Positions 35,503-44,071 of a stretch of 64,000 nucleotides of DNA are shown here, in pieces. A program made the translations under genes and the position numbers. The stretch lies in contig NZ_QQAR01000003.1 of the NCBI RefSeq assembly GCF_003350375.1, forward strand, positions 62,001 through 126,000. The letters run 5' to 3'. Positions within the stretch are counted from its first letter, which is position 1; each line of letters begins with the position of its first letter. The notes under the pieces are model-generated. The model saw only the letters and a program-made list of their open reading frames with translations. It was not told the origin of the DNA and searched no databases. Origin of the DNA: Flavobacterium sp. AG291. GTDB taxonomy: Bacteria; Bacteroidota; Bacteroidia; Flavobacteriales; Flavobacteriaceae.

Positions 35503-35510
35503 CTTGAGAG
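35503..35510 (+). repeat. Left target-site duplication CTTGAGAG
   Basis: Identical to 44064-44071. Joining the sequence up to 35510 with that from 44072 recreates a repeat matching the intact copy at 56664-56705 almost base for base. Confidence 0.9.
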
Positions 35511-35538
35511 GGTAACTATATACCAGGTTACAGTAAAT
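35511..35538 (+). repeat. Left terminal inverted repeat (28 bp)
   Basis: Starts GGTAACTATATACCAGG and ends ACAGTAAAT; a perfect reverse complement of 44036-44063. With one mismatch the similarity runs on for about 7 more bases (ATTAAT). Contains an inner ACAGTAAAT that also appears near the transposase promoter. Confidence 0.93.
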
Positions 35539-35546
35539 TATTAATT

Positions 35547-35581
35547 AAAAAGGTCGTGCAATAACCATGCACGACCTTTTT
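35547..35581 (-). terminator. Terminator just inside the left end
   Basis: A perfect 14-bp stem, AAAAAGGTCGTGCA/TGCACGACCTTTTT, on a 7-nt loop. It ends the long minus-strand cargo operon and would also stop transcription entering from outside. Confidence 0.9.
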
Positions 35582-35604
35582 ATCTTTCTTCTAGAAGTAA
35601 TATA

Positions 35605-35850
35605 TTAATCCTGTGAATCTCTTTTAGGGAAAAAATGACGTACCATAGTCGGTATGGAGTACGACAACATTAAGTCTACAGCTCCTAGAATAATATTGTT
35701 TTGCCATGGTGATTCTTGAACTACCTTTATAATGAGGGCAACAATAGCTCCCGCATAGACAAGTAAAAGAACGGCAGTAACCATAATCTTTAACCAAACA
35801 TCTGCCAAATCCCTGAACAAATTAACCGATTTTTGAGTTCTACTTGCCAT
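35605..35850 (-). CDS. Two-helix small membrane protein, 81 aa (cargo)
   Basis: Begins MASRTQKSVNLFRDLADVWL and has two membrane helices (about 21-43 and 52-70) with a basic C-terminus. No family recognised. Its ATG overlaps the end of the zinc-ribbon gene by 11 bp, so the two are coupled. It is the last gene before the terminator at 35547. A small membrane protein after a soluble pair recalls effector layouts in defence operons, which is only an analogy. Confidence 0.65.
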   Translation of the reverse strand: MASRTQKSVNLFRDLADVWLKIMVTAVLLLVYAGAIVALIIKVVQESPWQNNIILGAVDLMLSYSIPTMVRHFFPKRDSQD

Positions 35851-36181
35851 TTTCAATGTATTGGTAATATTCCACAATATTTAACTTGTCGGTTTCAAAC
35901 TCAAATTTGGGATAACCTTCTAATTCACATGTTCTACAAACAATTTTTTCAGGAATATCACTTTTTCGGTCATAACTTTTTATAATTCTGCCACACTCTT
36001 CATTTCCACATTCAATACTATATTTTTTTCTAAGGATACCTTGCCGAACTGCCATATCGCATAAAAACCTTGCCCAACGAGTAGGAATATTGAAAAAGCT
36101 TCTCACATTCTCAACAAAAATCCTATCGGGGTCAGTGTTTTCTACAATTGCGGCCTTGCGCTTTAGAAATCGATTAAACAT
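35840..36181 (-). CDS. Zinc-ribbon protein, 113 aa (cargo)
   Basis: A small protein whose only cysteines of note form a likely four-Cys zinc site: C58-x4-C63 and C82-x2-C85 (ECGNEECGR, VCRTCE). The N-terminus is basic (RFLKRKA), and the rest is helical then acidic. Function unknown. It lies 1 bp after the 290-aa gene and overlaps the two-TM gene, so the three are almost certainly one functional unit. Confidence 0.7.
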   Translation of the reverse strand: MFNRFLKRKAAIVENTDPDRIFVENVRSFFNIPTRWARFLCDMAVRQGILRKKYSIECGNEECGRIIKSYDRKSDIPEKIVCRTCELEGYPKFEFETDKLNIVEYYQYIENGK

Positions 36182-36182
36182 A

Positions 36183-37055
36183 CTAGTTTTTAGATAATAT
36201 CAAATCTATTAAATCTGTTGTTGCCATATGCTGTTTAGGAAATATAGCAAAATAAACTATACCTTTTGTCGGGTCGGCTACAAAAGCATCAACACTATGG
36301 TTTTGTTTTAAAACCTCAAAGGTAGTCCTTCCTATCGGGTCTTTAATAATTTTTAAATATTCCGCAGGTAAATCCCTCTTTAATAAAAAATCACCGTGTA
36401 AAGTTTCAGTCCTTACGGATTTTGCCATCGTAACTTTTGCTTTTGAAGCATCAATTTCTTCCTTGTCCCATAAATCTTTAATTCCTTTATTCAAATCACA
36501 AGGAGAGAGTTGAATCGGTCTTACAGATTCTGCAAAACTATTCAGAATATCGTTGTCTTCCATATTTCTTTTTGCTCCAACAATTTTATTGTCTATTAAA
36601 GCAGCAATGTCTCTTTCCAAAATATTTATGGCAACTATAAATCGGGTGCCTTTTCGTCGAATCTGAACTGGAACCAGAAAATCTACTGCTTCCTCTGCTT
36701 TTGAATCTTTATTGTAAAATTCGACAACAATAGGAAAAAGCAAGTTAAATATTTGTTGTCCTCCACTGGTTTCAGTTGATATAAAATATGGATGACCAGA
36801 GAGTAAATTAGGAGCAACAGTACCACGGAAATCATATATGTACACATGTTGCTTTAACAATGAGAAATTATCAAATACAGTTTTAAGAATAATATCTAAT
36901 GTATTCCCTTCTATAACTCTATTTATAAGTTCAGGTTGTCGCTCCTTATGTTCTTGTAAATTGAAAACTGTTTTTAGAGCATTTACAGAAAATGCTTTCA
37001 GTAGTCTTTTGTATTGTTCTGTTTTAGCGTTTAGTGGATTCCTACTCATTGTCAT
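36183..37055 (-). CDS. Hypothetical protein, 290 aa (cargo)
   Basis: The largest cargo gene apart from the transposase. A soluble mixed alpha/beta protein with no signal or membrane helix and no P-loop or nuclease motif I can name. Distinct stretches are IYDFRGTVAPNLLSGHPYF (about 73-91) and IRRKGTRFIVAINILERDI (about 131-149). It heads the tight set 290-aa, zinc ribbon, two-TM. A second ATG two codons in is possible. I do not recognise the family. Confidence 0.75.
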   Translation of the reverse strand: MTMSRNPLNAKTEQYKRLLKAFSVNALKTVFNLQEHKERQPELINRVIEGNTLDIILKTVFDNFSLLKQHVYIYDFRGTVAPNLLSGHPYFISTETSGGQQIFNLLFPIVVEFYNKDSKAEEAVDFLVPVQIRRKGTRFIVAINILERDIAALIDNKIVGAKRNMEDNDILNSFAESVRPIQLSPCDLNKGIKDLWDKEEIDASKAKVTMAKSVRTETLHGDFLLKRDLPAEYLKIIKDPIGRTTFEVLKQNHSVDAFVADPTKGIVYFAIFPKQHMATTDLIDLILSKN

Positions 37056-37158
37056 TACACATGTTAAATTTAATGGATTGGCAATTTTAGAGAATATTCT
37101 TCAATAATACAATGAGTAGTAAATATGTTTATTAAATTGCTTATTAACATTTTACATT

Positions 37159-37401
37159 CTATTCAATATTATTAAGCCAAGGAGGATTAGCCCCCATTAT
37201 CTGCCTATATTCCTCTATGGAAACTTCTCTTTGGTTTAGAAGCACTGGTGCTAACTTGGCGTTAGGATGATTTTCCCTAGCAATTTTAATTGCCATATCT
37301 TTAATCATATTAAGATTAAAATCACCCGCACTTCCCACTCTAACAATTTCCGAAAGTTCACCATCAATTATTACATTCACCTCATGTATATAATGTCGCA
37401 T
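37159..37401 (-). CDS. Hypothetical protein, 80 aa (cargo)
   Basis: Starts MRHYIHEVNVIIDGELSEI; strands followed by helices (KDMAIKIARENHPNAKLAP). No family recognised. The ATG lies 1 bp after the stop of the 46-aa ORF (TAAcATG), so it depends on that gene for translation. A longer start at 37410 would overlap the upstream stop and is less likely. Confidence 0.6.
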   Translation of the reverse strand: MRHYIHEVNVIIDGELSEIVRVGSAGDFNLNMIKDMAIKIARENHPNAKLAPVLLNQREVSIEEYRQIMGANPPWLNNIE

Positions 37402-37402
37402 G

Positions 37403-37543
37403 TTAATCACCTTTTTTATGTTTATGTGGTTTTAAATCGGGATGCTTTTCTTTATTTGGGGGGTCTACACGTCTTCTTCTGTCTGGTGTGCCATCTTCTT
37501 TTTTAGGTTTTGGACCAGGTTTAATTGCTTGAATTTTTTCCAT
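37403..37543 (-). CDS. Lys/Pro-rich small protein, 46 aa (cargo)
   Basis: A short ORF beginning MEKIQAIKPGPKPKKEDG and continuing with DRRRRVDPPNKEKHPDLKP, ending in a His/Lys tail. Strongly basic and disordered-looking, unlike a membrane or enzymatic protein. Spaced 1 bp from the 80-aa gene. The tight coupling argues that it is real. It could bind nucleic acid. Confidence 0.55.
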   Translation of the reverse strand: MEKIQAIKPGPKPKKEDGTPDRRRRVDPPNKEKHPDLKPHKHKKGD

Positions 37544-37572
37544 AATTAAAAAGTTGAGTTGTTGGTAATATT

Positions 37573-37785
37573 TTAAAAATGTCCGATATATGGATATGAG
37601 TTGAAAAATTTATCGAATTCTTCTTCATCTATCCCATCTGACAATTCAAGTTCAATTTTTATAAATTGGATACCACTGTCGTCATATGATATTTTATCTG
37701 CGTACTCAGCAAGTTTAAGTTTAAAATCACTTAACTCTTTTTCAGTATCAAGATTTCTCGGCTTAGGAATTTTAAATACTTTCAT
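37573..37785 (-). CDS. Hypothetical acidic protein, 70 aa (cargo)
   Basis: Starts MKVFKIPKPRNLDTEKELSDF and ends in acidic DGIDEEEFDKFFNSYPY. No family recognised. It follows the DUF2158 gene by 3 bp in the same operon. Confidence 0.6.
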   Translation of the reverse strand: MKVFKIPKPRNLDTEKELSDFKLKLAEYADKISYDDSGIQFIKIELELSDGIDEEEFDKFFNSYPYIGHF

Positions 37786-37788
37786 GAA

Positions 37789-37989
37789 TTAAGAATTATG
37801 TATATCAATCTCAATTTTGTCGTCTTGATATACTTTAGTTAAAGTTTGACCTTCAAAATCATTCCATTTTAATGTACCACTAGTAAACCAATTAGTATGA
37901 TAATTACCATTATTATAATCTTTAGCTACGGTCATTTTAGGCCCTCCTGATTTTAAAACCACAACATCACCAATTTTAAATTTTTCCAT
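37789..37989 (-). CDS. YodC-like DUF2158 protein, 66 aa (cargo)
   Basis: Short beta protein starting FKIGDVVVLKSGGPKMTV, the DUF2158/YodC signature, ending around FEGQTLTKVYQ. Such small proteins are frequent in phage and mobile-element cargo; their role is unknown. Lies between the P-loop NTPase and the 70-aa gene. Confidence 0.8.
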   Translation of the reverse strand: MEKFKIGDVVVLKSGGPKMTVAKDYNNGNYHTNWFTSGTLKWNDFEGQTLTKVYQDDKIEIDIHNS

Positions 37990-38008
37990 CTTTTATAGTT
38001 TTATAGAA

Positions 38009-38473
38009 TTAAATTACACCATTAGAATTAATATACTTTTTAATATCATCTAATATTTCATCGGCCCTTCCGTTAAGTTTTATTCTTTCCGAAACACTAT
38101 CAAATCTATCCCAAATGCCTGTCCCTATAGAATTTGAAAGATTATAAGATATTATATGATAACCATTAGAAGTTAAAAAACTTATTGTATTTGCATATTT
38201 ATTACCATTCAGTTGTTCTGCAAGAATTATAGTTTGAGGAAGATTGTCCCAATCTATAAATCTATCTACCAAATCAAGATTTTTTTCAGTTGGGGATGCA
38301 GGAATACAATATGCGGTTAATCTAAGGGATTTGAATCTTAAATCCATATAGATATTCCTCCAACTCGAACGCATAATTTTCCCTACACCATCTCCATATT
38401 GATTAATTAATTTTTTAATTGTAGATGTCTTACCAGAGTTTTGAACTCCGATTATTAAAATTGCTAATCTCAT
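38009..38473 (-). CDS. P-loop NTPase, 154 aa (cargo)
   Basis: Small nucleotide-binding protein. Walker A is GVQNSGKTSTIKKL at about 9-22. A Walker-B-like strand is PQTIILAEQLNG near 79-90. The fold is like a stripped-down kinase or GTPase; no GTPase NKxD motif was found. The protein opens at once with a hydrophobic strand (MRLAILIIGVQ). Substrate unknown. Confidence 0.7.
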   Translation of the reverse strand: MRLAILIIGVQNSGKTSTIKKLINQYGDGVGKIMRSSWRNIYMDLRFKSLRLTAYCIPASPTEKNLDLVDRFIDWDNLPQTIILAEQLNGNKYANTISFLTSNGYHIISYNLSNSIGTGIWDRFDSVSERIKLNGRADEILDDIKKYINSNGVI

Positions 38474-38491
38474 AGTAATTGTGTTATTTGA

Positions 38492-38818
38492 TTATGAGTG
38501 GAACGTTTCAAGATGGGAAAAATCATCTGTAAAATAAGTTAAAAGAAGTCCTGTAAAGTTCCCCATGATTACCGCTTTAACAGCATCATCTGGTTCTCCC
38601 ATATAATCCCAAAACGTAGTTTCAGCTATTAATTTACCAGCAACTGAGGTAAGGTCAATTAATACTTTATCAATGTACTGTGCAGCAGTATGATTGAGTA
38701 GTTTGTTTTTGTCATTATCTACTTCAATCTTCCATGTCCTGAACTCACCGTCCTCGACATTTTTAATAATAGCCTTTTTTAAAGCTATTGGGGCTGTAGT
38801 TATTATTTCTATTCTCAT
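38492..38818 (-). CDS. Hypothetical protein, 108 aa (cargo)
   Basis: Starts MRIEIITTAPIALKKAI; a soluble protein with a strand-helix N-terminus and AGKLIAETTFWDYMGEPDDA in the middle. No family recognised. It lies 18 bp upstream of the NTPase gene and probably heads that operon. No clear -7 box was seen. Confidence 0.6.
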   Translation of the reverse strand: MRIEIITTAPIALKKAIIKNVEDGEFRTWKIEVDNDKNKLLNHTAAQYIDKVLIDLTSVAGKLIAETTFWDYMGEPDDAVKAVIMGNFTGLLLTYFTDDFSHLETFHS

Positions 38819-38860
38819 ATATAGGGGGATAAATATTAAAATTAAGAAATATATAATAAG

Positions 38861-38885
38861 AAAAAATACCCATTAATGGGTATTT
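38861..38885 (-). terminator. Terminator of the Cas2-like unit
   Basis: A perfect 22-bp palindrome (AAATACCCATT/AATGGGTATTT), followed on the minus strand by TTT. Confidence 0.8.
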
Positions 38886-38941
38886 AAAGGATGAAAATGT
38901 AACTTGCAAAAAGATGAATGGCAAGTAGAGGGAAAAGGATA

Positions 38942-39172
38942 TTACTTTTTTATAATTTCAATACCTTTTTCTGATATTTTTAGGATATAAGTTTCTCCAT
39001 CTTCCATCTCCGATTTTATTTTATCTATTTGATTATGTACTTCTTCTTTAGAAGGATAATTTTTAAATAGCTCTTCATTATTGTTAAAATATTCAGTGTC
39101 AATTTTTCTACCTTGGTAATATGTCTCTGTAGTTATAGAATTAGGAATTATAAACGATTTTTTAATATCCAT
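38942..39172 (-). CDS. Hypothetical protein, 76 aa (cargo)
   Basis: Starts MDIKKSFIIPNSITTETYY; the ATG at 39172 is 4 bp after the stop of the 80-aa repeat protein. Earlier starts would overlap it. The C-terminus is helical and charged (NQIDKIKSEMEDGETYILK). No family recognised. Last gene of the Cas2-like unit. Confidence 0.55.
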   Translation of the reverse strand: MDIKKSFIIPNSITTETYYQGRKIDTEYFNNNEELFKNYPSKEEVHNQIDKIKSEMEDGETYILKISEKGIEIIKK

Positions 39173-39176
39173 ATCT

Positions 39177-39419
39177 TTATTCTTTACCATTTGATTGTGA
39201 AAGCACTGAGCCAGCCAAAGTTTTTGTAGTCTCACTATATTTATCACTTTGTAGAGCTTTTGATGCTATTCTTTCCATTTGCTCACTTGTTTGGTTATTT
39301 GTGTTTGCCTGTGATAAAACTGAGCCAGCCAATTGCTTAGCTATATGAGAAGAATTAGGGTCCTTTAAAACACTAGATGCTATTTTTGTTACTGGAGGTG
39401 ATGATTTTTTTGCACTCAT
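39177..39419 (-). CDS. Internally duplicated 80-aa protein (cargo)
   Basis: Two near-identical halves: VTKIASSVLKDPNSSHIAKQ then LAGSVLSQ (about 10-37), and MERIASKALQSDKYSETTKT then LAGSVLSQ (about 48-75). Each half has the pattern IAS..L, Ser-rich turn, K.LAGSVLSQ, suggesting two copies of a helix-turn-helix-sized unit. From memory, proteins with this LAGSxLSQ pattern accompany stand-alone Cas2-like proteins, but I cannot verify it. Middle gene of the Cas2-like unit. Confidence 0.6.
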   Translation of the reverse strand: MSAKKSSPPVTKIASSVLKDPNSSHIAKQLAGSVLSQANTNNQTSEQMERIASKALQSDKYSETTKTLAGSVLSQSNGKE

Positions 39420-39459
39420 TGTATGTTATTTTATGATTAACCTTTAAACCTAAGTATCA

Positions 39460-39705
39460 TTAAAAATCCAAAGGCAAATTATCTGTATTATATGTTGCCC
39501 ATGCAGTAGCTTCTATAACAAGTATTCCGTCATCTACATCTATATATTGTCTAAAATAATCTCTTACTTTTTCGTATTCAGCATTTACTTTAATACACCA
39601 TACGGATTCCAAAACTCTTACGCCATCATACCTTTCTAATTCATCATATAGCGTTTGATAATTTCGTTGTTTACGTAAATCGTAACTAATAAAAAACATT
39701 GGCAT
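39460..39705 (-). CDS. Stand-alone Cas2-fold protein (SinR/VapD-like)
   Basis: An 81-residue ferredoxin-fold protein. MFFISYDLRKQRNYQTLYDEL has the beta-1 Asp of Cas2-like nucleases; LESVWCIKVN follows after the first helix, then VDDGILVIEAT. There is no cas1, array or other cas gene nearby, so it is not CRISPR adaptation. Relatives are VapD-type toxins and the SinR family. It heads a promoter-to-terminator unit with the duplicated 80-aa protein and the 76-aa protein. Confidence 0.7.
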   Translation of the reverse strand: MPMFFISYDLRKQRNYQTLYDELERYDGVRVLESVWCIKVNAEYEKVRDYFRQYIDVDDGILVIEATAWATYNTDNLPLDF

Positions 39706-39733
39706 CTTAAATCTAGATTAGGGGGTTATTCCT

Positions 39734-39741
39734 CAAAAATA
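39734..39741 (-). promoter_or_regulatory. -7 element TATTTTTG for the Cas2-like unit
   Basis: A perfect TAnnTTTG on the minus strand, 28 bp upstream of the ATG at 39705. Confidence 0.65.
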
Positions 39742-39802
39742 CAAATAACGGATTTGTTGTATATACGTAAAAATACCTGATTTTTAGTTGGTTGATAAAA
39801 TA

Positions 39803-40144
39803 CTATGGGCATGTAGGGCAAGACTTTTTTCTCGAATCATTGCAGCATTTTAACGAACAATATTTACCAATAGAATTATCATCATAAGTACTGGTACAAT
39901 CCGACATCCTACCTAAATGAGTATAATGTACACCCGTAAATTGCGTTGAACACCATGAACAAGTTTTACTCTTTTCATAAGATTGACTGGTACTATCGTA
40001 TGATTCAGAACTACTAGTTTGCATCTGTTGTTCCTGCAGTGGAATCTCAGCATTATTTGTTGCTTTAATATATAAAGAGCCTAAATATAAAAGCAAAAGC
40101 CCTACACAGATTATAGGGATTAATTTACCGACATTATCTTTCAT
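39803..40144 (-). CDS. Membrane-anchored Cys-rich protein, 113 aa (cargo)
   Basis: One N-terminal membrane helix (about 8-27, LIPIICVGLLLLYLGSLYI), a Ser/Gln linker, then a Cys-rich C-terminal region (CSWCSTQFTG, CSLKCCNDSRKKSCPTCP) that could bind zinc. No family recognised. Its start overlaps the stop of the lipoprotein gene by 4 bp (ATGA), so the two form an operon. Confidence 0.65.
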   Translation of the reverse strand: MKDNVGKLIPIICVGLLLLYLGSLYIKATNNAEIPLQEQQMQTSSSESYDSTSQSYEKSKTCSWCSTQFTGVHYTHLGRMSDCTSTYDDNSIGKYCSLKCCNDSRKKSCPTCP

Positions 40145-40554
40145 GGTATAAGTATATTATCAAGGATTATTTCATTTGCTGTTACCGTCTTCTTACATTC
40201 GACATCACTCCATTGGCCTTGATTACCATAACTCTCAATCCTATATTGCATACAAACGTTTTCATCCGTATTTGTTCCATTATTTACAGCATCACCACCT
40301 AAAGTATATCTCACTCGAATTAAATCACCAGATTTAACTAAACCGTGAGGGCTGTTATCATCTCCAAGACGATTCCATCCGTTTGAATCAGATTTCTTTT
40401 CAATCCAAATATGATTTTCAGGTAAATTATATAACACCTTCACATATATGGCTTTGTTAGTAGATGGAGTATTTGTGTTAGTCGGTTCACTTGTGTCATC
40501 ACTACAAGCTATTAAGCCTGTGACCATAAACAAATACAGTAGAGCTCTTTTCAT
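40141..40554 (-). CDS. Cargo lipoprotein, 137 aa
   Basis: Signal peptide MKRALLYLFMVTGLIACSDD with the lipobox LIAC, then a Thr/Asn-rich linker and a beta-rich domain (IWIEKKSDSNGWNRLGDD, DLIRVRYTLGG). No family recognised. First gene of a two-gene operon with the Cys-rich membrane protein; divergent from the XRE regulator. Confidence 0.75.
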   Translation of the reverse strand: MKRALLYLFMVTGLIACSDDTSEPTNTNTPSTNKAIYVKVLYNLPENHIWIEKKSDSNGWNRLGDDNSPHGLVKSGDLIRVRYTLGGDAVNNGTNTDENVCMQYRIESYGNQGQWSDVECKKTVTANEIILDNILIP

Positions 40555-40580
40555 AATAAGTAGATTTTAAGTTTGATGAG

Positions 40581-40588
40581 CAAATGTA
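40581..40588 (-). promoter_or_regulatory. -7 element TACATTTG for the cargo lipoprotein operon
   Basis: A perfect TAnnTTTG on the minus strand in the 116-bp divergent region, 26 bp upstream of the ATG at 40554. Confidence 0.65.
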
Positions 40589-40673
40589 TAAAAAACAGAT
40601 TAATATGACTGGATTTATACGTTACTATTTTTATGACTACTTACTTCTATTTTTCATAATTAAATGGTAAGTG

Positions 40674-40898
40674 ATGAGAAAGAAGGAGATTCCTCAATCT
40701 GTCAAAGATGTTGGAGCTAATATTAAAGCTATTATAAAAGAGAAGAATCTAAAGGTTAGGCACGTAGCTCATGATGCCGATTTAGACATCGAAGCTTTAA
40801 GGAGATATATGGCAGGAAAGCAGATTATGGGTATTGATAAATTTATCCTAATAGCAAAAGCCCTAGGTGTCGAAGCATCTGAATTATATAAAATATAA
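40674..40898 (+). CDS. XRE-type helix-turn-helix regulator (cargo)
   Basis: A 74-residue Cro/C1-type DNA-binding protein. Helix 1 is VGANIKAIIKEKN, and the HTH covers RHVAHDADLDIEALRRYMAGK (about 27-48). GIDKFILIAKALGV completes the fold. The ATG at 40674 is preferred; a GTG sits one codon upstream. It is divergent from the lipoprotein operon and probably regulates nearby cargo. Confidence 0.85.
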   Translation: MRKKEIPQSVKDVGANIKAIIKEKNLKVRHVAHDADLDIEALRRYMAGKQIMGIDKFILIAKALGVEASELYKI

Positions 40899-40946
40899 AT
40901 CTATCTTTACTTCTTGTACTTCATAGTTTATTTTAAGTAAAAAACT

Positions 40947-41516
40947 ATGAAAATTCTATATGAGTTAAAACAAATTTTTAGAAATCTAAAACATAAATTC
41001 AGGATGTTTGTATTCAATATTCTAGATGCTTTTGAACAGCAGTTCGCACACTGGTACCATTTCTCAATAAATATAAAAACGGATGATAACGAGAACGAAT
41101 TTGTTTTACCCGTTTTTGCCTGTATGAGAGAAAGGTCTCATGCCGAGAGCTTAATGAATCAGATACAAAAAGATTTGATTCAAAACAACTTGATGTTGTT
41201 AGCCTCAGGTATAACGGAAATTACAGAGGAACAAAAAAATTCAATAATTGCCGAATTAGAAAATCAACTAGCAGGGCAAGAGGTAATTGAACTTAGGGCG
41301 ATGATATATAATCAAGTCGGACAAAGAAATAGACCTAGTACTTCTGGACTTTTTAATGAAGAAGATTTAAATCCTACAAACTTAGATTCTTTTACAAATT
41401 ATAAACTAGACACTACAGTAACTTTCAGAATGAACATTTTAAGAAACCAAGGAGTTCCTTTTCATCAAATTAGAGACTGTTTTTTAGTGAAACTGGACAA
41501 ATCTAAATTAAAATAA
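40947..41516 (+). CDS. Hypothetical protein, 189 aa (cargo)
   Basis: A soluble protein with a helical N-terminus, then a segment with RERSHAESLMNQIQKDLIQN and a later stretch ending RDCFLVKLDKSKLK. No signal peptide, membrane helix or motif I recognise. It lies 48 bp downstream of the XRE regulator and may share its transcript. Confidence 0.65.
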   Translation: MKILYELKQIFRNLKHKFRMFVFNILDAFEQQFAHWYHFSINIKTDDNENEFVLPVFACMRERSHAESLMNQIQKDLIQNNLMLLASGITEITEEQKNSIIAELENQLAGQEVIELRAMIYNQVGQRNRPSTSGLFNEEDLNPTNLDSFTNYKLDTTVTFRMNILRNQGVPFHQIRDCFLVKLDKSKLK

Positions 41517-41519
41517 TTT

Positions 41520-41699
41520 TCATTGCTCTAGTTGCTTTATTTTTTTCCTTATCTCCGCAATTTCCTTTTTGAGCTTTAGAGCCTGTAATTCTTTTTGAAG
41601 TCTTTGCCTTCTATGGATATCCTTTTCATAATTAAGCTCGCGGAGCTTTAAATCGATTTTATTACGTAGTTTTATTATATATTGATTAATAGTATTCAT
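41520..41699 (-). CDS. Coiled-coil small protein, 59 aa (cargo)
   Basis: Reads MNTINQYIIKLRNKIDLKLR and then continues as uninterrupted Lys/Glu-rich helix with RRQRLQKELQALKLKKEI, a long amphipathic coiled coil. It lies tail to tail with the 189-aa gene (3-bp gap). No family recognised. Confidence 0.5.
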   Translation of the reverse strand: MNTINQYIIKLRNKIDLKLRELNYEKDIHRRQRLQKELQALKLKKEIAEIRKKIKQLEQ

Positions 41700-41758
41700 A
41701 TAATTAAATATGTCTTACAGAATAAAAATTCAGTATTAAAAGTTATTATTCTGTAAAT

Positions 41759-41789
41759 AAAAAGACCTCCGATCACCGGAGGTCTTTTT
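41759..41789 (-). terminator. Terminator after the transposase unit
   Basis: A 13-bp stem, AAAAAGACCTCCG/CGGAGGTCTTTTT, on a 5-nt loop; it can terminate in either direction. Confidence 0.9.
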
Positions 41790-41790
41790 A

Positions 41791-42006
41791 TTATTTTTTC
41801 TTTTTATGTTCTTTAGGATTCCATTCAAGTCCCTGCTTCAATTTCTTATTAAAATCGGATAATTCTTCCTCTTTTGGTTCTTCGTTTATAACAGTCAAAC
41901 TTGATAGCTTGCTCCAATTCTCAACATTATTTTTAAAATCATCCCAACTGTTTGAAGCCTTTACTAGCTCAACTAGGACATCAATATTTATTACACCACT
42001 ACCCAT
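41791..42006 (-). CDS. Hypothetical protein overlapping the transposase, 71 aa
   Basis: Starts MGSGVINIDVLVELVKASN; its ATG lies inside the last codons of the transposase gene (8-bp overlap), so it is translated from the same transcript. Helical and acidic in the middle, Lys-rich at the end (KEHKKKK). No family recognised. It could be a transposition accessory protein. Confidence 0.6.
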   Translation of the reverse strand: MGSGVINIDVLVELVKASNSWDDFKNNVENWSKLSSLTVINEEPKEEELSDFNKKLKQGLEWNPKEHKKKK

Positions 42007-42937
42007 TGATAAGCTGTTTATATGTTATACGGTTTTCAATATTCGAAAGTAATAAATTAAATCGTAAACAATCGGTTTGTTTTCTGGTATTATACCTGAA
42101 TGAAAATTCATTAACATACTTCTGCAGGTGTTTCCTTGATACAAAATGATAAATACCGATAATACCACGTTTTAATAAACTCCAGAATCCTTCAATAGTA
42201 TTTGTATGGAAATGTTCATATCTAACATATTCTTTCTTATCATGCATTACCTTCATGTGTCCATGAAAGTGTTTATGTATATCCTTATATGCCCCAAAAC
42301 CATCCGTAACTATATATGCCGATTCTTTTATGTTATTGTACATTATTGGCTTAATAATGTTCCCAACTGCTTTATCAATTACAAATCCTTTTACAGAGCC
42401 ACCACGTTCTAATATTCCTAATACAGGTTGTTTGTGATTGCCACCAGTTTGCATACCATTTTTATGAAGTTCTTTTCTTTTTGATAATGACTTATTCTTG
42501 TTCTCACCGCCAACATAAGTTTCATCAACTTCAACTAAATTATCAGCCATATCGTCGCCATTGATATCAAAACAGTTCCTAATTCTTTGAAGCATAAACC
42601 AAGCTGATTTTTGGGTAATATTCAAATCACGGCTTAATTGAAGAGATGAGATTCCTTTTTTGTGTGAAGTTGCTATCCAGATAGCTAAAAACCATTTTTG
42701 TAATTCAATCTTTGTGTTATCAAAAATCGTGTTGGTTTTCACGTTGAAATATTTACCAGTAGACTTACAATGGTATCGGTTATTCTTGCACTTGTAAATT
42801 TTTGAAGTTTTATCAAAAGGGCTTACAACATTTCCATTCCATCTGATTGCTTCAAGATGTTCAATACATGATTGTTCAGTTGGGAATGCCTGTATAAGTT
42901 GAATAACTGATTTGATGTTGTCGTTAAAAATTTTCAT
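41999..42937 (-). CDS. IS1595-family (ISXO2-like) transposase
   Basis: A 312-residue DDE-type transposase. The N-terminal zinc-ribbon region (31-65) ends GKYFNVKTNTIFDNTKIELQ, a family landmark. A helical part follows (GISSLQLSRDLNITQKSAWF). The ISXO2 catalytic domain has VEVDETYVGG (D138), IVTDGFGAY (D212) and NTIEGFWSLLKRG (N246/E249), then RYNTRKQ. The usual CxxC pairs of the ribbon are reduced to lone cysteines. It is the only transposase between the ends and has its own promoter. Confidence 0.93.
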   Translation of the reverse strand: MKIFNDNIKSVIQLIQAFPTEQSCIEHLEAIRWNGNVVSPFDKTSKIYKCKNNRYHCKSTGKYFNVKTNTIFDNTKIELQKWFLAIWIATSHKKGISSLQLSRDLNITQKSAWFMLQRIRNCFDINGDDMADNLVEVDETYVGGENKNKSLSKRKELHKNGMQTGGNHKQPVLGILERGGSVKGFVIDKAVGNIIKPIMYNNIKESAYIVTDGFGAYKDIHKHFHGHMKVMHDKKEYVRYEHFHTNTIEGFWSLLKRGIIGIYHFVSRKHLQKYVNEFSFRYNTRKQTDCLRFNLLLSNIENRITYKQLING

Positions 42938-42944
42938 TGCCTGG

Positions 42945-43000
42945 TTATTTACAGTACAAATATAGAACTTATTTACAGTTAAGCAAATTATTTACTGTAA
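42945..43000. promoter_or_regulatory. Transposase promoter with repeated TTATTTACAGT boxes
   Basis: The minus-strand -7 box TATATTTG is at 42957-42964. TTATTTACAGT occurs at 42945-42955 and 42969-42979 (24-bp spacing), and an inverted relative, TTATTTACTGTAA, is at 42988-43000. The terminal repeats contain the related ACAGTAAAT. Probable binding sites through which the transposase or a host factor controls expression. Confidence 0.6.
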
Positions 43001-43081
43001 AAAAGAACTAATTTTTATTTTATTACTGCAATTAAAGTTTAATAGGATATTTATGTAATAGATTACATCTAATAATTTACA

Positions 43082-43105
43082 TATCTTTGTAAAAGATTAT
43101 ATTTG
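43082..43105 (+). promoter_or_regulatory. Two -7 boxes before the Panacea gene
   Basis: TATCTTTG at 43082-43089 and TATATTTG at 43098-43105. The second covers the alternative TTG start at 43103, which is therefore rejected in favour of the ATG at 43121. Confidence 0.6.
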
Positions 43106-43120
43106 AACAAACTATCTTAT

Positions 43121-43573
43121 ATGCATAACGCTTTATATATTGCAGATTGTCTTATAGATTTGGCTTCACAGAATCCTGATAATAATGACATGACCAATAT
43201 GAAGCTTCAAAAGCTTCTTTACTATGTACAAGGAACGTACTTAGCTTTACATGGTTCAAGAATGTTTGAACAGGGGATAAAAAAATGGCAATACGGACCC
43301 GTTGTCCCAGATGTTTACCATGCATTTAAAGACAGGGGTAACCAAACAATTAATTTTGACCAACTTATTGATACATCTGGTTTAAACGACAATGAGAAAG
43401 ATGTAATCAAAATGGTTTATGATTATTTCGGCCAATTTTCTGCCATAGCTCTAATGAATTTTACACATAATGAATCCCCTTGGAATTCAGTAGAAATGAG
43501 CGAAGAAATAACAGATGATTTATTGTTAGAGTACTTTAAGACAATTGTGATTAAAGAAGATGGCGAAGAATAA
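43121..43573 (+). CDS. Panacea-domain antitoxin (SocA/DUF4065 type)
   Basis: A 150-residue protein with the Panacea fold: MHNALYIADCLIDLA, NMKLQKLLYYVQGTYLA, IKKWQYGPVVPDVYHAF, then a C-terminal helix pair with LMNFTHNESPW. Panacea proteins act as antitoxins to many unrelated toxins. The partner gene begins 14 bp before its stop. Located at the right end of the transposon, facing outward, where a stability module is plausible. Confidence 0.88.
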   Translation: MHNALYIADCLIDLASQNPDNNDMTNMKLQKLLYYVQGTYLALHGSRMFEQGIKKWQYGPVVPDVYHAFKDRGNQTINFDQLIDTSGLNDNEKDVIKMVYDYFGQFSAIALMNFTHNESPWNSVEMSEEITDDLLLEYFKTIVIKEDGEE

Positions 43574-43994
43574 AGGGAAAGCCAGATTTAACCATATTCA
43601 ACAGGCGCAGAAGGGGTTTAACCATACTCCACCAACAGAAAACAGGATTTCTATGCCTGACCATAAACATCCAGTTTTTTGTTTTAAACATGTCCATCCT
43701 GACCATAATTTAAATGAATGCACTGCTGATGAAAAAGTTAGTCTTTTAGAACAAATAGTTAGGCTAAGTCAGATGACTTGGGATGAAATTGAAAGGACTC
43801 ATAGACATGGAATGGGAAGTGAAAAAATTGAGGTGAATAGTTTAAAGGTAAAATGTCCTGAATTTATTACTGACGATGTAAATTATCTTTTATCATTAAG
43901 ATTTCAAGGCAAAAAGCCATTCTTAATCCATAGAGATAGATTTATATGCCATGTAATTTTTATTGATAACAAATTCTCAGTCTATAAACACTAA
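43560..43994 (+). CDS. Probable toxin partner of the Panacea antitoxin
   Basis: A 144-residue soluble protein that overlaps the antitoxin by 14 bp. A basic N-terminus (MAKNKGKARFNHIQQAQKG) is followed by a His/Cys-rich stretch (FCFKHVHPDHNLNEC), a helix (WDEIERTHRHGMGSEKI), and a final strand set with FLIHRDRFICHVIFIDNKFS. I do not recognise the family; the RHGMGSEKI and R-x8-F motifs faintly recall small ribonuclease toxins. Toxin role is inferred only from its pairing. Confidence 0.6.
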   Translation: MAKNKGKARFNHIQQAQKGFNHTPPTENRISMPDHKHPVFCFKHVHPDHNLNECTADEKVSLLEQIVRLSQMTWDEIERTHRHGMGSEKIEVNSLKVKCPEFITDDVNYLLSLRFQGKKPFLIHRDRFICHVIFIDNKFSVYKH

Positions 43995-44031
43995 TAAAAA
44001 TAAGCCTCAAATATCGAGGCTTATTTTTATT
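43993..44031 (+). terminator. Terminator just inside the right end
   Basis: A perfect 16-bp stem, AATAAAAATAAGCCTC/GAGGCTTATTTTTATT, on a 7-nt loop, 5 bp inside the right terminal repeat. Stops outward transcription from the toxin-antitoxin pair. Confidence 0.9.
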
Positions 44032-44035
44032 AATC

Positions 44036-44063
44036 ATTTACTGTAACCTGGTATATAGTTACC
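44036..44063 (-). repeat. Right terminal inverted repeat (28 bp)
   Basis: Ends ...CCTGGTATATAGTTACC on the plus strand; a perfect reverse complement of 35511-35538. Confidence 0.93.
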
Positions 44064-44071
44064 CTTGAGAG
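44064..44071 (+). repeat. Right target-site duplication CTTGAGAG
   Basis: Identical to 35503-35510; followed by GGGATAGGGGTGTG, the remainder of the interrupted repeat. Confidence 0.9.

What the first reader, a model, noticed from the sequence alone, without database searches (positions are those of the whole stretch)
43121..43994. Panacea antitoxin with an unrecognised toxin at the right end
Panacea proteins pair with many different toxins. The overlapping partner (43560) does not match a toxin type I know. Sited at the end of a transposon it would punish loss.
Basis: partly seen in the sequence, partly recalled or inferred. Interest (0 to 1): 0.62.

Follow-up and report, generated by a model that had tools for sequence, protein, structure and literature searches.

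The report
Transposon-borne Panacea toxin-antitoxin pair
A mobile DNA element in this bacterium carries, just inside its right end, a pair of overlapping genes that looks like a poison and its antidote; the antidote is of a known kind, and the unnamed poison is predicted to fold like the RelE family of toxins that stop protein synthesis.

Summary
43121-43573 encodes a stand-alone Panacea (PF13274) protein. 43560-43994 overlaps it by 14 bases and encodes a 144-aa partner with no Pfam match. The partner is not an orphan: it belongs to phrog_8366 (no known function) and occurs in temperate phages and nine bacterial phyla. Its relatives form 59 clusters at 90% identity; in 55 a Panacea gene lies directly upstream, and the other four are two fragments, a contig-edge case and a truncated remnant. 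Two AlphaFold models (pLDDT 87 and 89) resemble RelE/HigB/YoeB/YafQ toxins (best Z 8.8 and 8.7). Profile comparison with YafQ and HigB finds nothing, so the link rests on predicted fold alone. The 'transposon end' holds up: an 8,553-bp IS1595-type element (35511-44063) has 40-bp inverted ends and an 8-bp target duplication, with the pair between transposase and right end. Best reading: a type II PanAT module whose toxin probably acts on translation, stabilising the element and perhaps defending against phages. Toxicity is untested. Distant forms of the toxin domain sit beside AbiLi-type ATPases and at the end of an NsnC (Menshen) protein, hinting at a shared anti-phage effector. Known kind of system; the toxin's fold and wider links are the new part.

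The parts
35511..44063 (.). 8,553-bp IS1595-type transposon that carries the pair
   Evidence: 40-bp terminal inverted repeats and 8-bp target-site duplication; G+C 31% against 38% and 41% in 10 kb on either side; only copy in the genome by its end sequence
35503..35510 (.). left copy of the target-site duplication, CTTGAGAG
44064..44071 (.). right copy of the target-site duplication, CTTGAGAG
35511..35550 (+). left terminal inverted repeat (first 28 bases perfect, 38 of 40 overall)
44024..44063 (-). right terminal inverted repeat
41999..42937 (-). IS1595-family transposase, 312 aa, transcribed away from the pair
   Evidence: PF12762 E 1.4e-37; NF033547 191 bits against cut-off 75
42947..43001 (-). 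three copies of the inner part of the terminal repeat (xxTACxGTAAAT type) between transposase and antitoxin gene; possible transposase-binding or operator sites
   Evidence: matches at 42947-42958, 42971-42982 and 42990-43001; exact TTACAGTAAATAATT at 42986-43000
43053..43068 (.). perfect palindrome ATGTAATAGATTACAT upstream of the pair, possible operator
   Evidence: read from the sequence; significance not tested
43082..43089 (+). TATCTTTG, possible -7 element of a Bacteroidota-type promoter
   Evidence: read from the sequence; consensus recalled, not tested
43121..43573 (+). panA: stand-alone Panacea antitoxin, 150 aa
   Evidence: 28-41% identical to seven Panacea proteins that lie beside relatives of the partner
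43560..43994 (+). panT: putative toxin, 144 aa, phrog_8366 family, RelE-like predicted fold; F40, H83, G86, E88, P100, R114 and H144 are invariant in the 45-sequence alignment and present here
43992..44032 (.). stem-loop (17-bp arms, fully complementary) after panT, possible terminator at the element's end
   Evidence: the terminator scan lists it on the minus strand only

Best explanation
The two genes are a type II toxin-antitoxin operon of the Panacea (PanAT) kind, antitoxin first, carried as cargo between the transposase gene and the right end of an IS1595-type transposon. PanA binds and silences PanT directly (inferred from work on other stand-alone Panacea antitoxins). PanT has a RelE-like fold and most likely enters the ribosomal A site and cuts mRNA, or otherwise halts translation, when PanA is lost or disabled (inferred). 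The pair would make loss of the element costly and may also arrest phage-infected cells. Shown here: the gene pair, its conserved linkage, the transposon, the predicted fold. Inferred: toxicity, neutralisation, target, function. My estimates: a toxin-antitoxin pair 0.9, RelE-like fold 0.85, mRNA cleavage 0.55.
For: (1) Linkage: searches made with the partner alone bring a Panacea gene directly upstream in 78 of 80 viral-contig hits, 22 of 25 genome-contig hits and 13 of 13 whole-genome hits at E 1e-12 or better. By 90%-identity cluster it is 55 of 59, the four others being two fragments, one contig edge and one truncated remnant. (2) Spread: temperate phages of Pseudomonas and of the P22 type, a Legionella plasmid, and genomes of nine phyla as read from the record titles: Bacteroidota, Patescibacteria, Acidobacteriota, Cyanobacteria, Pseudomonadota, Desulfobacterota, Chloroflexota, Fibrobacterota, Cloacimonadota. 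(3) In E. coli two variants of the pair are found in 48 and 34 of 5,426 genomes, and every matching record has a place that covers at least 80% of the two-gene query. (4) Purifying selection: dN/dS 0.04 (dS 1.12) and 0.15 (dS 1.15) for panT, 0.05 (dS 0.73) and 0.07 (dS 0.93) for panA, in the two most usable of eight pairs. (5) Fold: pLDDT 87 and 89. The best match is T. thermophilus RelE at Z 8.8 (rmsd 2.8, 86 aligned) and 8.7 (2.8, 86), and 46 of the 50 rows shown in each list are named as RelE/HigB/YoeB/YafQ/ParE-type toxins or toxin-antitoxin complexes. (6) Transposon anatomy, with the same end type in three relatives of the transposase, two of them with 8-bp duplications.
Against: Foldseek itself gives no match below E 0.28. 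Profile comparison with YafQ and HigB-like families gives at most 1% probability, while those two find each other at 96%. Only one row per list has Z of 8 or more, and the tool warns that Z under 8 may mean only a common arrangement; the lists are also a second look at Foldseek's own candidates. Neither toxicity nor neutralisation has been tested for this pair. One phage record has a frameshifted panA beside an open panT (L006), which a strict addiction model would not expect. RelE-fold proteins can also be gyrase poisons. PMC8832971 reports that eight of 25 candidate PanTs were not toxic in E. coli (section 6 read).
Confidence: 0.68

Rival explanations
1. The pair is chiefly an anti-phage (abortive infection) module: Panacea senses a phage product and releases PanT; riding on a transposon and on prophages is just how such modules spread.
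For: Many homologues lie in temperate phages and viral contigs. Distant forms of the PanT domain lie next to AbiLi-type ATPases (L104-L106) and form the C-terminus of an NsnC-type protein (L110). PMC10440598 proposes Panacea as a sensor (passages).
Against: I found no phage test of this family. PADLOC has no model that matches the pair itself. The distant forms share only a domain, not the antitoxin.
Confidence: 0.4
2. PanT is a toxin with the RelE/ParE fold but acts like ParE, by poisoning DNA gyrase.
For: ParE structures are among the rows of the structure comparison, at Z 5.4-5.8, and an entry named YoeB/ParE at 6.5.
Against: The best rows are RelE, HigB, YafQ and YoeB (RNases, recalled); the invariant H83, E88, R114 and C-terminal Y142/H144 suit a nuclease better than a gyrase binder (inference, no superposition of residues done).
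Confidence: 0.15
3. PanA is a SocA-like protease adaptor (type VI), delivering PanT for degradation.
For: P0001 matches the SocA model NF047745 at E 4.4e-22.
Against: 78.6 bits against that model's cut-off of 190, so it is not a SocA equivalog; published pull-downs of other PanA/PanT pairs show complexes (PMC8832971, abstract and figure legend in section 5).
Confidence: 0.08
4. The partner is not a toxin but an accessory or regulatory protein of the Panacea protein.
For: No toxicity data; one record with broken panA and open panT (L006).
Against: RelE-like predicted fold in two models; the two panT copies in long contigs that lack panA (L085, L090) have lost about 40 N-terminal residues and the start codon. 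Where one gene of a pair is broken it is panT with panA open in five inspected cases (L100, L111, L131, L260, L261) and the reverse in one (L006); sequencing errors could explain any of them.
Confidence: 0.08

Closest known systems
PanAT toxin-antitoxin systems (Panacea/DUF4065; Kurata et al. 2022, PMC8832971; 2023, PMC10440598)
   Same: Stand-alone Panacea antitoxin, antitoxin-first overlapping operon, small partner of a conserved family, patchy mobile distribution.
   Different: The partner family is not among the ten pairs of Table 1 by name or stated toxin family. Whether it is one of their 88 predicted toxin clusters could not be checked, as the datasets were not readable.
RelE/HigB/YoeB/YafQ toxins
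   Same: Predicted helices plus sheet fold covering residues 35-144; conserved charged residues and a C-terminal Tyr/His.
   Different: No detectable sequence or profile similarity in the tests made; an extra N-terminal tail of about 35 low-confidence residues; paired with Panacea rather than RelB/HigA/YefM/DinJ-type antitoxins.
phrog_8366 / NCBIfam NF046006 'MAG6450 family'
   Same: P0002 matches phrog_8366 at E 2.5e-34; 39 of 45 members of alignment A4 match NF046006 at E 0.1 or better, best 1.2e-7.
   Different: phrog_8366 has no known function; P0002 itself does not match NF046006, and none of the relatives whose bit scores I saw reaches its 40-bit cut-off.
Toxin-antitoxin pairs inside Tn3-family transposons (PMC7157771)
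   Same: A TA pair sits inside the transposition module of a transposon and may be co-regulated with it.
   Different: IS1595-type element rather than Tn3; the pair there abuts a res site, and I looked for no resolvase or res site here; PanAT is not a TA type that I saw named in the passages read.
Serratia phage OS31 p23/p24 (PMC7556043)
   Same: Panacea gene and overlapping toxin-like gene on a temperate phage.
   Different: Its toxin gene is described as MazF-like (COG2337), not RelE-like (passages).

Membership tests
PanAT toxin-antitoxin systems | Antitoxin with a Panacea domain (PF13274) | tested here: met
   80 bits against cut-off 25.7
PanAT toxin-antitoxin systems | Two genes within 100 nt, same strand | tested here: met
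   14-base overlap
[quoted passage not shown]
   55 of 59 partner clusters have a Panacea gene directly upstream; nine phyla
PanAT toxin-antitoxin systems | Toxin inhibits growth and PanA relieves it | not testable with these tools
   needs expression
RelE/HigB/YoeB/YafQ toxin families | RelE-like fold | tested here: met
   predicted structure only: Z 8.8 and 8.7 to T. thermophilus RelE, 46 of 50 rows shown in each list of this kind; Foldseek alone weak, best E 0.28
RelE/HigB/YoeB/YafQ toxin families | Sequence or profile similarity to a member family | tested here: not met
   no Pfam match up to E 1; hhalign to YafQ 1.0% and HigB-like 0.5%, positive control 96%
RelE/HigB/YoeB/YafQ toxin families | Catalytic residues in equivalent positions | tested here: inconclusive
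   H83, E88, R114 and H144 invariant in 45 sequences, but no superposition of residues was possible
RelE/HigB/YoeB/YafQ toxin families | Ribosome-dependent mRNA cleavage | not testable with these tools
   needs biochemistry
SocA (type VI) equivalog NF047745 | Score over the curated cut-off | tested here: not met
   78.6 bits against 190
NCBIfam NF046006 MAG6450 family | Score over the 40-bit cut-off | tested here: not met
   P0002 no match
IS1595-family transposon | IS1595-type transposase | tested here: met
   NF033547 191 bits against 75
IS1595-family transposon | Terminal inverted repeats and 8-bp target duplication (recalled as typical of the family) | tested here: met
   38 of 40 bases, CTTGAGAG twice; 8-bp duplications also at L196 and L197 but not at L194 or L198

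The most novel reading that the evidence does not exclude
The PanT domain (phrog_8366/MAG6450-like) is one RelE-like, ribosome-directed effector that has been fitted to three different control systems: Panacea antitoxins in phages and transposons, AbiLi-type AAA ATPases, and the Menshen anti-phage system as the C-terminal domain of an NsnC protein. If so, this transposon pair is a minimal anti-phage switch, and a mechanism can be proposed for that class of Menshen effector.
Probability: 0.28. Interest if true: 0.66.

Novelty: new member of a known kind. Interest (0 to 1): 0.46.

Why it matters
Panacea antitoxins are known for pairing with dozens of unrelated toxins, most without a recognised domain. 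Giving a fold and a candidate target to one widespread partner family of unknown function makes its toxicity directly testable in E. coli, where natural copies exist on P22-like prophages and where the open toxin frame had no annotated gene in three records that I inspected. The same domain beside AbiLi-type and NsnB-type ATPases suggests that classical toxin-antitoxin pairs and multi-gene phage defences share an effector. A TA pair between the transposase gene and the end of an IS1595-type element extends, to another transposon family, the idea that TA pairs can be part of a transposition module.

Tried and rejected
Rejected: that the partner is an orphan with no relatives (a single-sequence scan of viral contigs found none, but tblastn and profile-guided scans found many). 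Rejected: that the pair is a SocA/SocB equivalog (below cut-off). Sought and not found: a PDB relative by sequence, for P0002 or for its 45-member profile; a viral structure match (BFVD, best E 0.64); profile similarity to YafQ or HigB families. For those profiles I used 16 of 28 listed YafQ places and 22 of 43 listed HigB-like places, leaving out those with stops, weak ones, those without a locus, and L243 and L244.

Sought and not usable: an empty insertion site. The gene right of the element has its best same-genus relatives at about 45-50% identity, and the genes left of the element were not found in the roughly 3.9-kb neighbourhoods that I had of them. A wider search for the AbiLi-associated form gave only the three places already known (3 of 395 genomes) and nothing in viral contigs.

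Against my reading: L006 has a frameshifted panA with an open panT. L099 was listed by the search as having a stop in panT, but on inspection it is open to within a few residues of the end, so I did not count it as broken. L102 (stop listed, Panacea cut short) and L137 (both genes decayed) were not counted either. The count of broken panT against broken panA (5 to 1) is too small to be significant and could be sequencing error. Of the four transposase relatives whose candidate ends I followed, L196 and L197 show an 8-bp duplication; L194 has the same end sequence without one, and L198 has other ends without a perfect one. No matching ends were found for L193 (contig ends soon after) or L195.

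Literature: in the capped listings of searches for Panacea, SocA, MAG6450, phrog_8366, NF046006, Panacea with RelE, Menshen, and IS1595 with TA I saw no paper that describes this toxin family, apart from a mutant list that names MAG6450 (PMC3179502). A paper on Menshen domain polymorphism (PMC12065111, seen only as a reference) is not held, so it may already describe the NsnC C-terminal domain. The supplementary datasets of PMC8832971, which list all predicted PanT clusters, could not be read.

Full report
WHAT IS THERE. The reading frame 43121-43573 encodes a 150-residue protein that is essentially one Panacea domain (PF13274, E 3.3e-22). The next frame, 43560-43994, starts 14 bases before the first one ends and encodes 144 residues. 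Up to E 1 it matches nothing in Pfam or NCBIfam, PADLOC or the sequences of solved structures. It does match phrog_8366, a phage protein family of unknown function, at E 2.5e-34.

THE TRANSPOSON. A 42-nt inverted repeat, 95% complementary, lies at 35509-35550 and 44024-44065. Trimmed to symmetrical ends the element runs from 35511 to 44063 (8,553 bp). Its first 28 bases match perfectly between the ends, 38 of 40 in all, and the same 8 bases, CTTGAGAG, flank it on both sides. The 29-base end pattern is found twice in the window against 0 in 100 shuffles, and at no other place in the genome held. Inside lies an IS1595-family transposase at 41999-42937 on the minus strand (191 bits against a cut-off of 75). 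I fetched six relatives of this transposase from other genomes of the genus. Three lie in elements that begin with the same GGTAA(C/G)TATA (L194, L196, L197), and two of these have perfect 8-bp duplications (L196, L197); L194 and L198 do not, and no ends were found for L193 and L195. The element's G+C is 31% against 38% and 41% in the 10 kb on either side. The gene pair lies between the transposase gene and the right end, transcribed away from the transposase, with a stem-loop at 43992-44032 just before the end.

THE PAIR IS CONSERVED. I searched with the partner protein, its family or its alignments only, never with Panacea. tblastn found it in 12 phage records and 3 plasmid records, of which I fetched 4 and 2. 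Profile-guided scans gave 80 viral-contig loci (capped at 80 of 82; 30, nearly all the same contigs) and 24 loci in genomes whose titles span nine phyla. Whole-genome searches with phrog_8366 gave 4 of 100 relatives and 19 of 395 genomes of the phylum (the window's own genome is counted in both), so the family is patchy. At E 1e-12 or better, a Panacea gene lies directly upstream on the same strand in 4 of 4 phage loci, 2 of 2 plasmid loci, 78 of 80 viral hits, 30 of 30 of the second viral scan, 22 of 25 genome-contig hits and 13 of 13 whole-genome hits, a few of them repeats of one place. One of the 24 genome-contig loci, L137, gave no hit at that level. Clustered at 90% identity (repeat and unrelated fetches L168-L192 and L200 onward left out) there are 59 clusters. 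In 55 Panacea is upstream; of the other four, two are fragments (L123, L131), one lies at a contig edge (L126), and one (L085/L090) lacks Panacea. L085 and L090 have lost about 40 N-terminal residues and the start codon, as expected of a toxin that cannot be kept without its antitoxin. In E. coli, two variants of the pair occur in 48 and 34 of 5,426 genomes, and every matching record has a place that covers at least 80% of the two genes together. The toxin frame is open but has no CDS of its own in three records that I inspected (L258, L259, L262).

SELECTION AND DECAY. I compared eight pairs of loci. For panT, dN/dS is 0.04 (dS 1.12) and 0.15 (dS 1.15) in the two pairs with useful divergence. 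A third gives 0.04 at a near-saturated dS of 3.1, three very close pairs give 0.33-0.51 on 2-5 non-synonymous changes and say little, and two are saturated. For panA the same two pairs give 0.05 and 0.07; one other gives 0.40 (dS 0.22), two close pairs 0.12 and 0.19, and three are saturated. Among inspected loci where one gene is broken, panT is broken beside an open panA in five (L100, L111, L131, L260, L261) and the reverse holds in one (L006). That points the right way but is not significant.

FOLD. AlphaFold models of the window protein (alignment of 45, pLDDT 87.0) and of an enterobacterial prophage relative (alignment of 43, pLDDT 89.2) show the same order: a strand, a long helix, a short helix, then strands of a sheet, with a floppy N-terminal tail. 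Foldseek against the PDB gives only weak scores, but its best row is a YafQ structure (E 0.28). Aligned by VIA-align to Foldseek's own candidates (843 and 348 chains), the best match of both models is T. thermophilus RelE (Z 8.8 and 8.7, rmsd 2.8, 86 aligned), followed by HigB, YafQ, YoeB and RelE-type entries at Z 7.0-7.6. In each list 46 of the 50 rows shown are named as RelE/HigB/YoeB/YafQ/ParE-type toxins or toxin-antitoxin complexes; the other four are HP0894, two Cami1 entries and Txp40. Against this, only one row per list reaches Z 8. A profile comparison with YafQ and HigB-like proteins fails (1.0% and 0.5%, within the range of 40 column-shuffled controls each, best 5.8% and 12.7%), although YafQ and HigB find each other at 96%. 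I conclude that PanT probably has a RelE-like fold but is not a sequence-level member of the RelE-type families that I tested. F40, H83, G86, E88, P100, R114 and H144 are invariant in 45 sequences, and P38, W74, K89, I90, G123, F130, D136 and Y142 nearly so. The window protein has all seven invariant residues but not the usual glycine at 123 or phenylalanine at 130. A His, Glu, Arg and C-terminal Tyr/His set would suit an RNase active site; that is inference, since no superposition of residues was available.

WIDER FAMILY. 39 of 45 members of the alignment match NCBIfam NF046006 (MAG6450 family) at E 0.1 or better, best 1.2e-7. In Mycoplasma agalactiae, MAG6450 follows, by locus number, MAG6440, named as a putative prophage protein ps3 (PMC3179502, passages). 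The Panacea gene of a Pseudomonas phage carries a 'prophage ps3' note, so that pair may be another case; this is a lead by name only. Distant forms of the PanT domain lack Panacea. In L104-L106 (three genomes of one genus) a 147-152-residue form follows an ATPase; the two that I scanned match AbiLi (E 9e-87 and 1.5e-88). In L110 and L112 it is the C-terminal part of a 279-residue protein that follows an ATPase; in L110, the one scanned, these match NsnC (E 1.2e-85) and NsnB (E 2.8e-74). A profile built without them finds all five at E 7.6e-8 to 2.7e-5, with no hit to reversed decoys. hhalign gives 94.5% and 92.6% for the two types (no shuffled control there). That NsnB and NsnC name parts of the Menshen system is recalled; [quoted passage not shown]

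HOW IT PROBABLY WORKS. A single upstream promoter (a TATCTTTG element at 43082-43089 and a perfect 16-base palindrome at 43053-43068, both only read by eye) would make PanA first and PanT by coupled translation over the 14-base overlap. PanA, which has no extra domain, would bind PanT directly; for stand-alone Panacea antitoxins this is the published mode (PMC10440598, passages including part of the abstract). When PanA is lost or disabled, PanT halts growth, most likely at the ribosome. Between transposase and panA lie three copies of the inner part of the transposon end (42947-43001; 11 matches in the whole window, two sites counted on both strands, against a shuffled mean of 2.5 and a largest value of 10; one exact 15-base copy). 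If the transposase binds there, expression of the pair could be tied to transposition, as proposed for TA pairs in Tn3-family elements (PMC7157771, passages). Whether the pair's main benefit is stabilising the element or stopping phages cannot be decided from sequence.

WHAT IS KNOWN AND WHAT IS NEW. PanAT systems are known: PMC8832971 (abstract, section 5 part 1 of 2, and section 6 read) predicts 88 toxin clusters and validates nine new pairs, with 938 of 1,268 putative toxins having no hit in the conserved-domain database. This partner is probably one of those clusters, which I could not check. New here, as far as my searches reach, are the fold assignment, the description of the carrier transposon, and the link to AbiLi-type and NsnC proteins. 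I therefore rate it a new member of a known kind, with moderate interest, and keep the shared-effector idea as the bolder reading.

Noticed in passing
L104, L105, L106 and L110, L112: Distant forms of the PanT domain follow an AbiLi-type AAA ATPase, or form the C-terminus of an NsnC-type protein, instead of pairing with Panacea.
   Followed up: partly
42947-43001: Three copies of the inner part of the transposon's terminal repeat lie between the divergent transposase and antitoxin genes; they may be transposase-binding sites or the relic of an older right end.
   Followed up: partly
39460-39705: A Cas2-like protein (PF09827, E 5.4e-9, 36.6 bits against cut-off 23.8) lies inside the transposon among unknown small proteins; I did not look for a CRISPR array.
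   Followed up: no
L258 (2501-3378), L259 (1501-2378) and L262 (1501-2378): In these E. coli records the panT frame is open but has no annotated CDS of its own; 33 of 34 rows list Panacea alone under the match.
   Followed up: partly
L085 3941-4273 and L090 3959-4273: PanT remnants without Panacea that lack the N-terminus and a start codon; L090 also has Cys in place of the invariant Arg.
   Followed up: yes
L111 757-2959: Two Panacea/PanT-like pairs in tandem in one genome, the first toxin broken by a frameshift.
   Followed up: no
L196 6653-10433 and L197 6769-11503: Related IS1595-type elements in the same genus carry other passenger genes that I did not identify, and end in the same GGTAA-type repeats with 8-bp duplications.
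   Followed up: partly
40671-41516: A small HTH protein and a 189-aa protein without a Pfam match over a cut-off lie side by side inside the element, possibly another two-gene unit.
   Followed up: no
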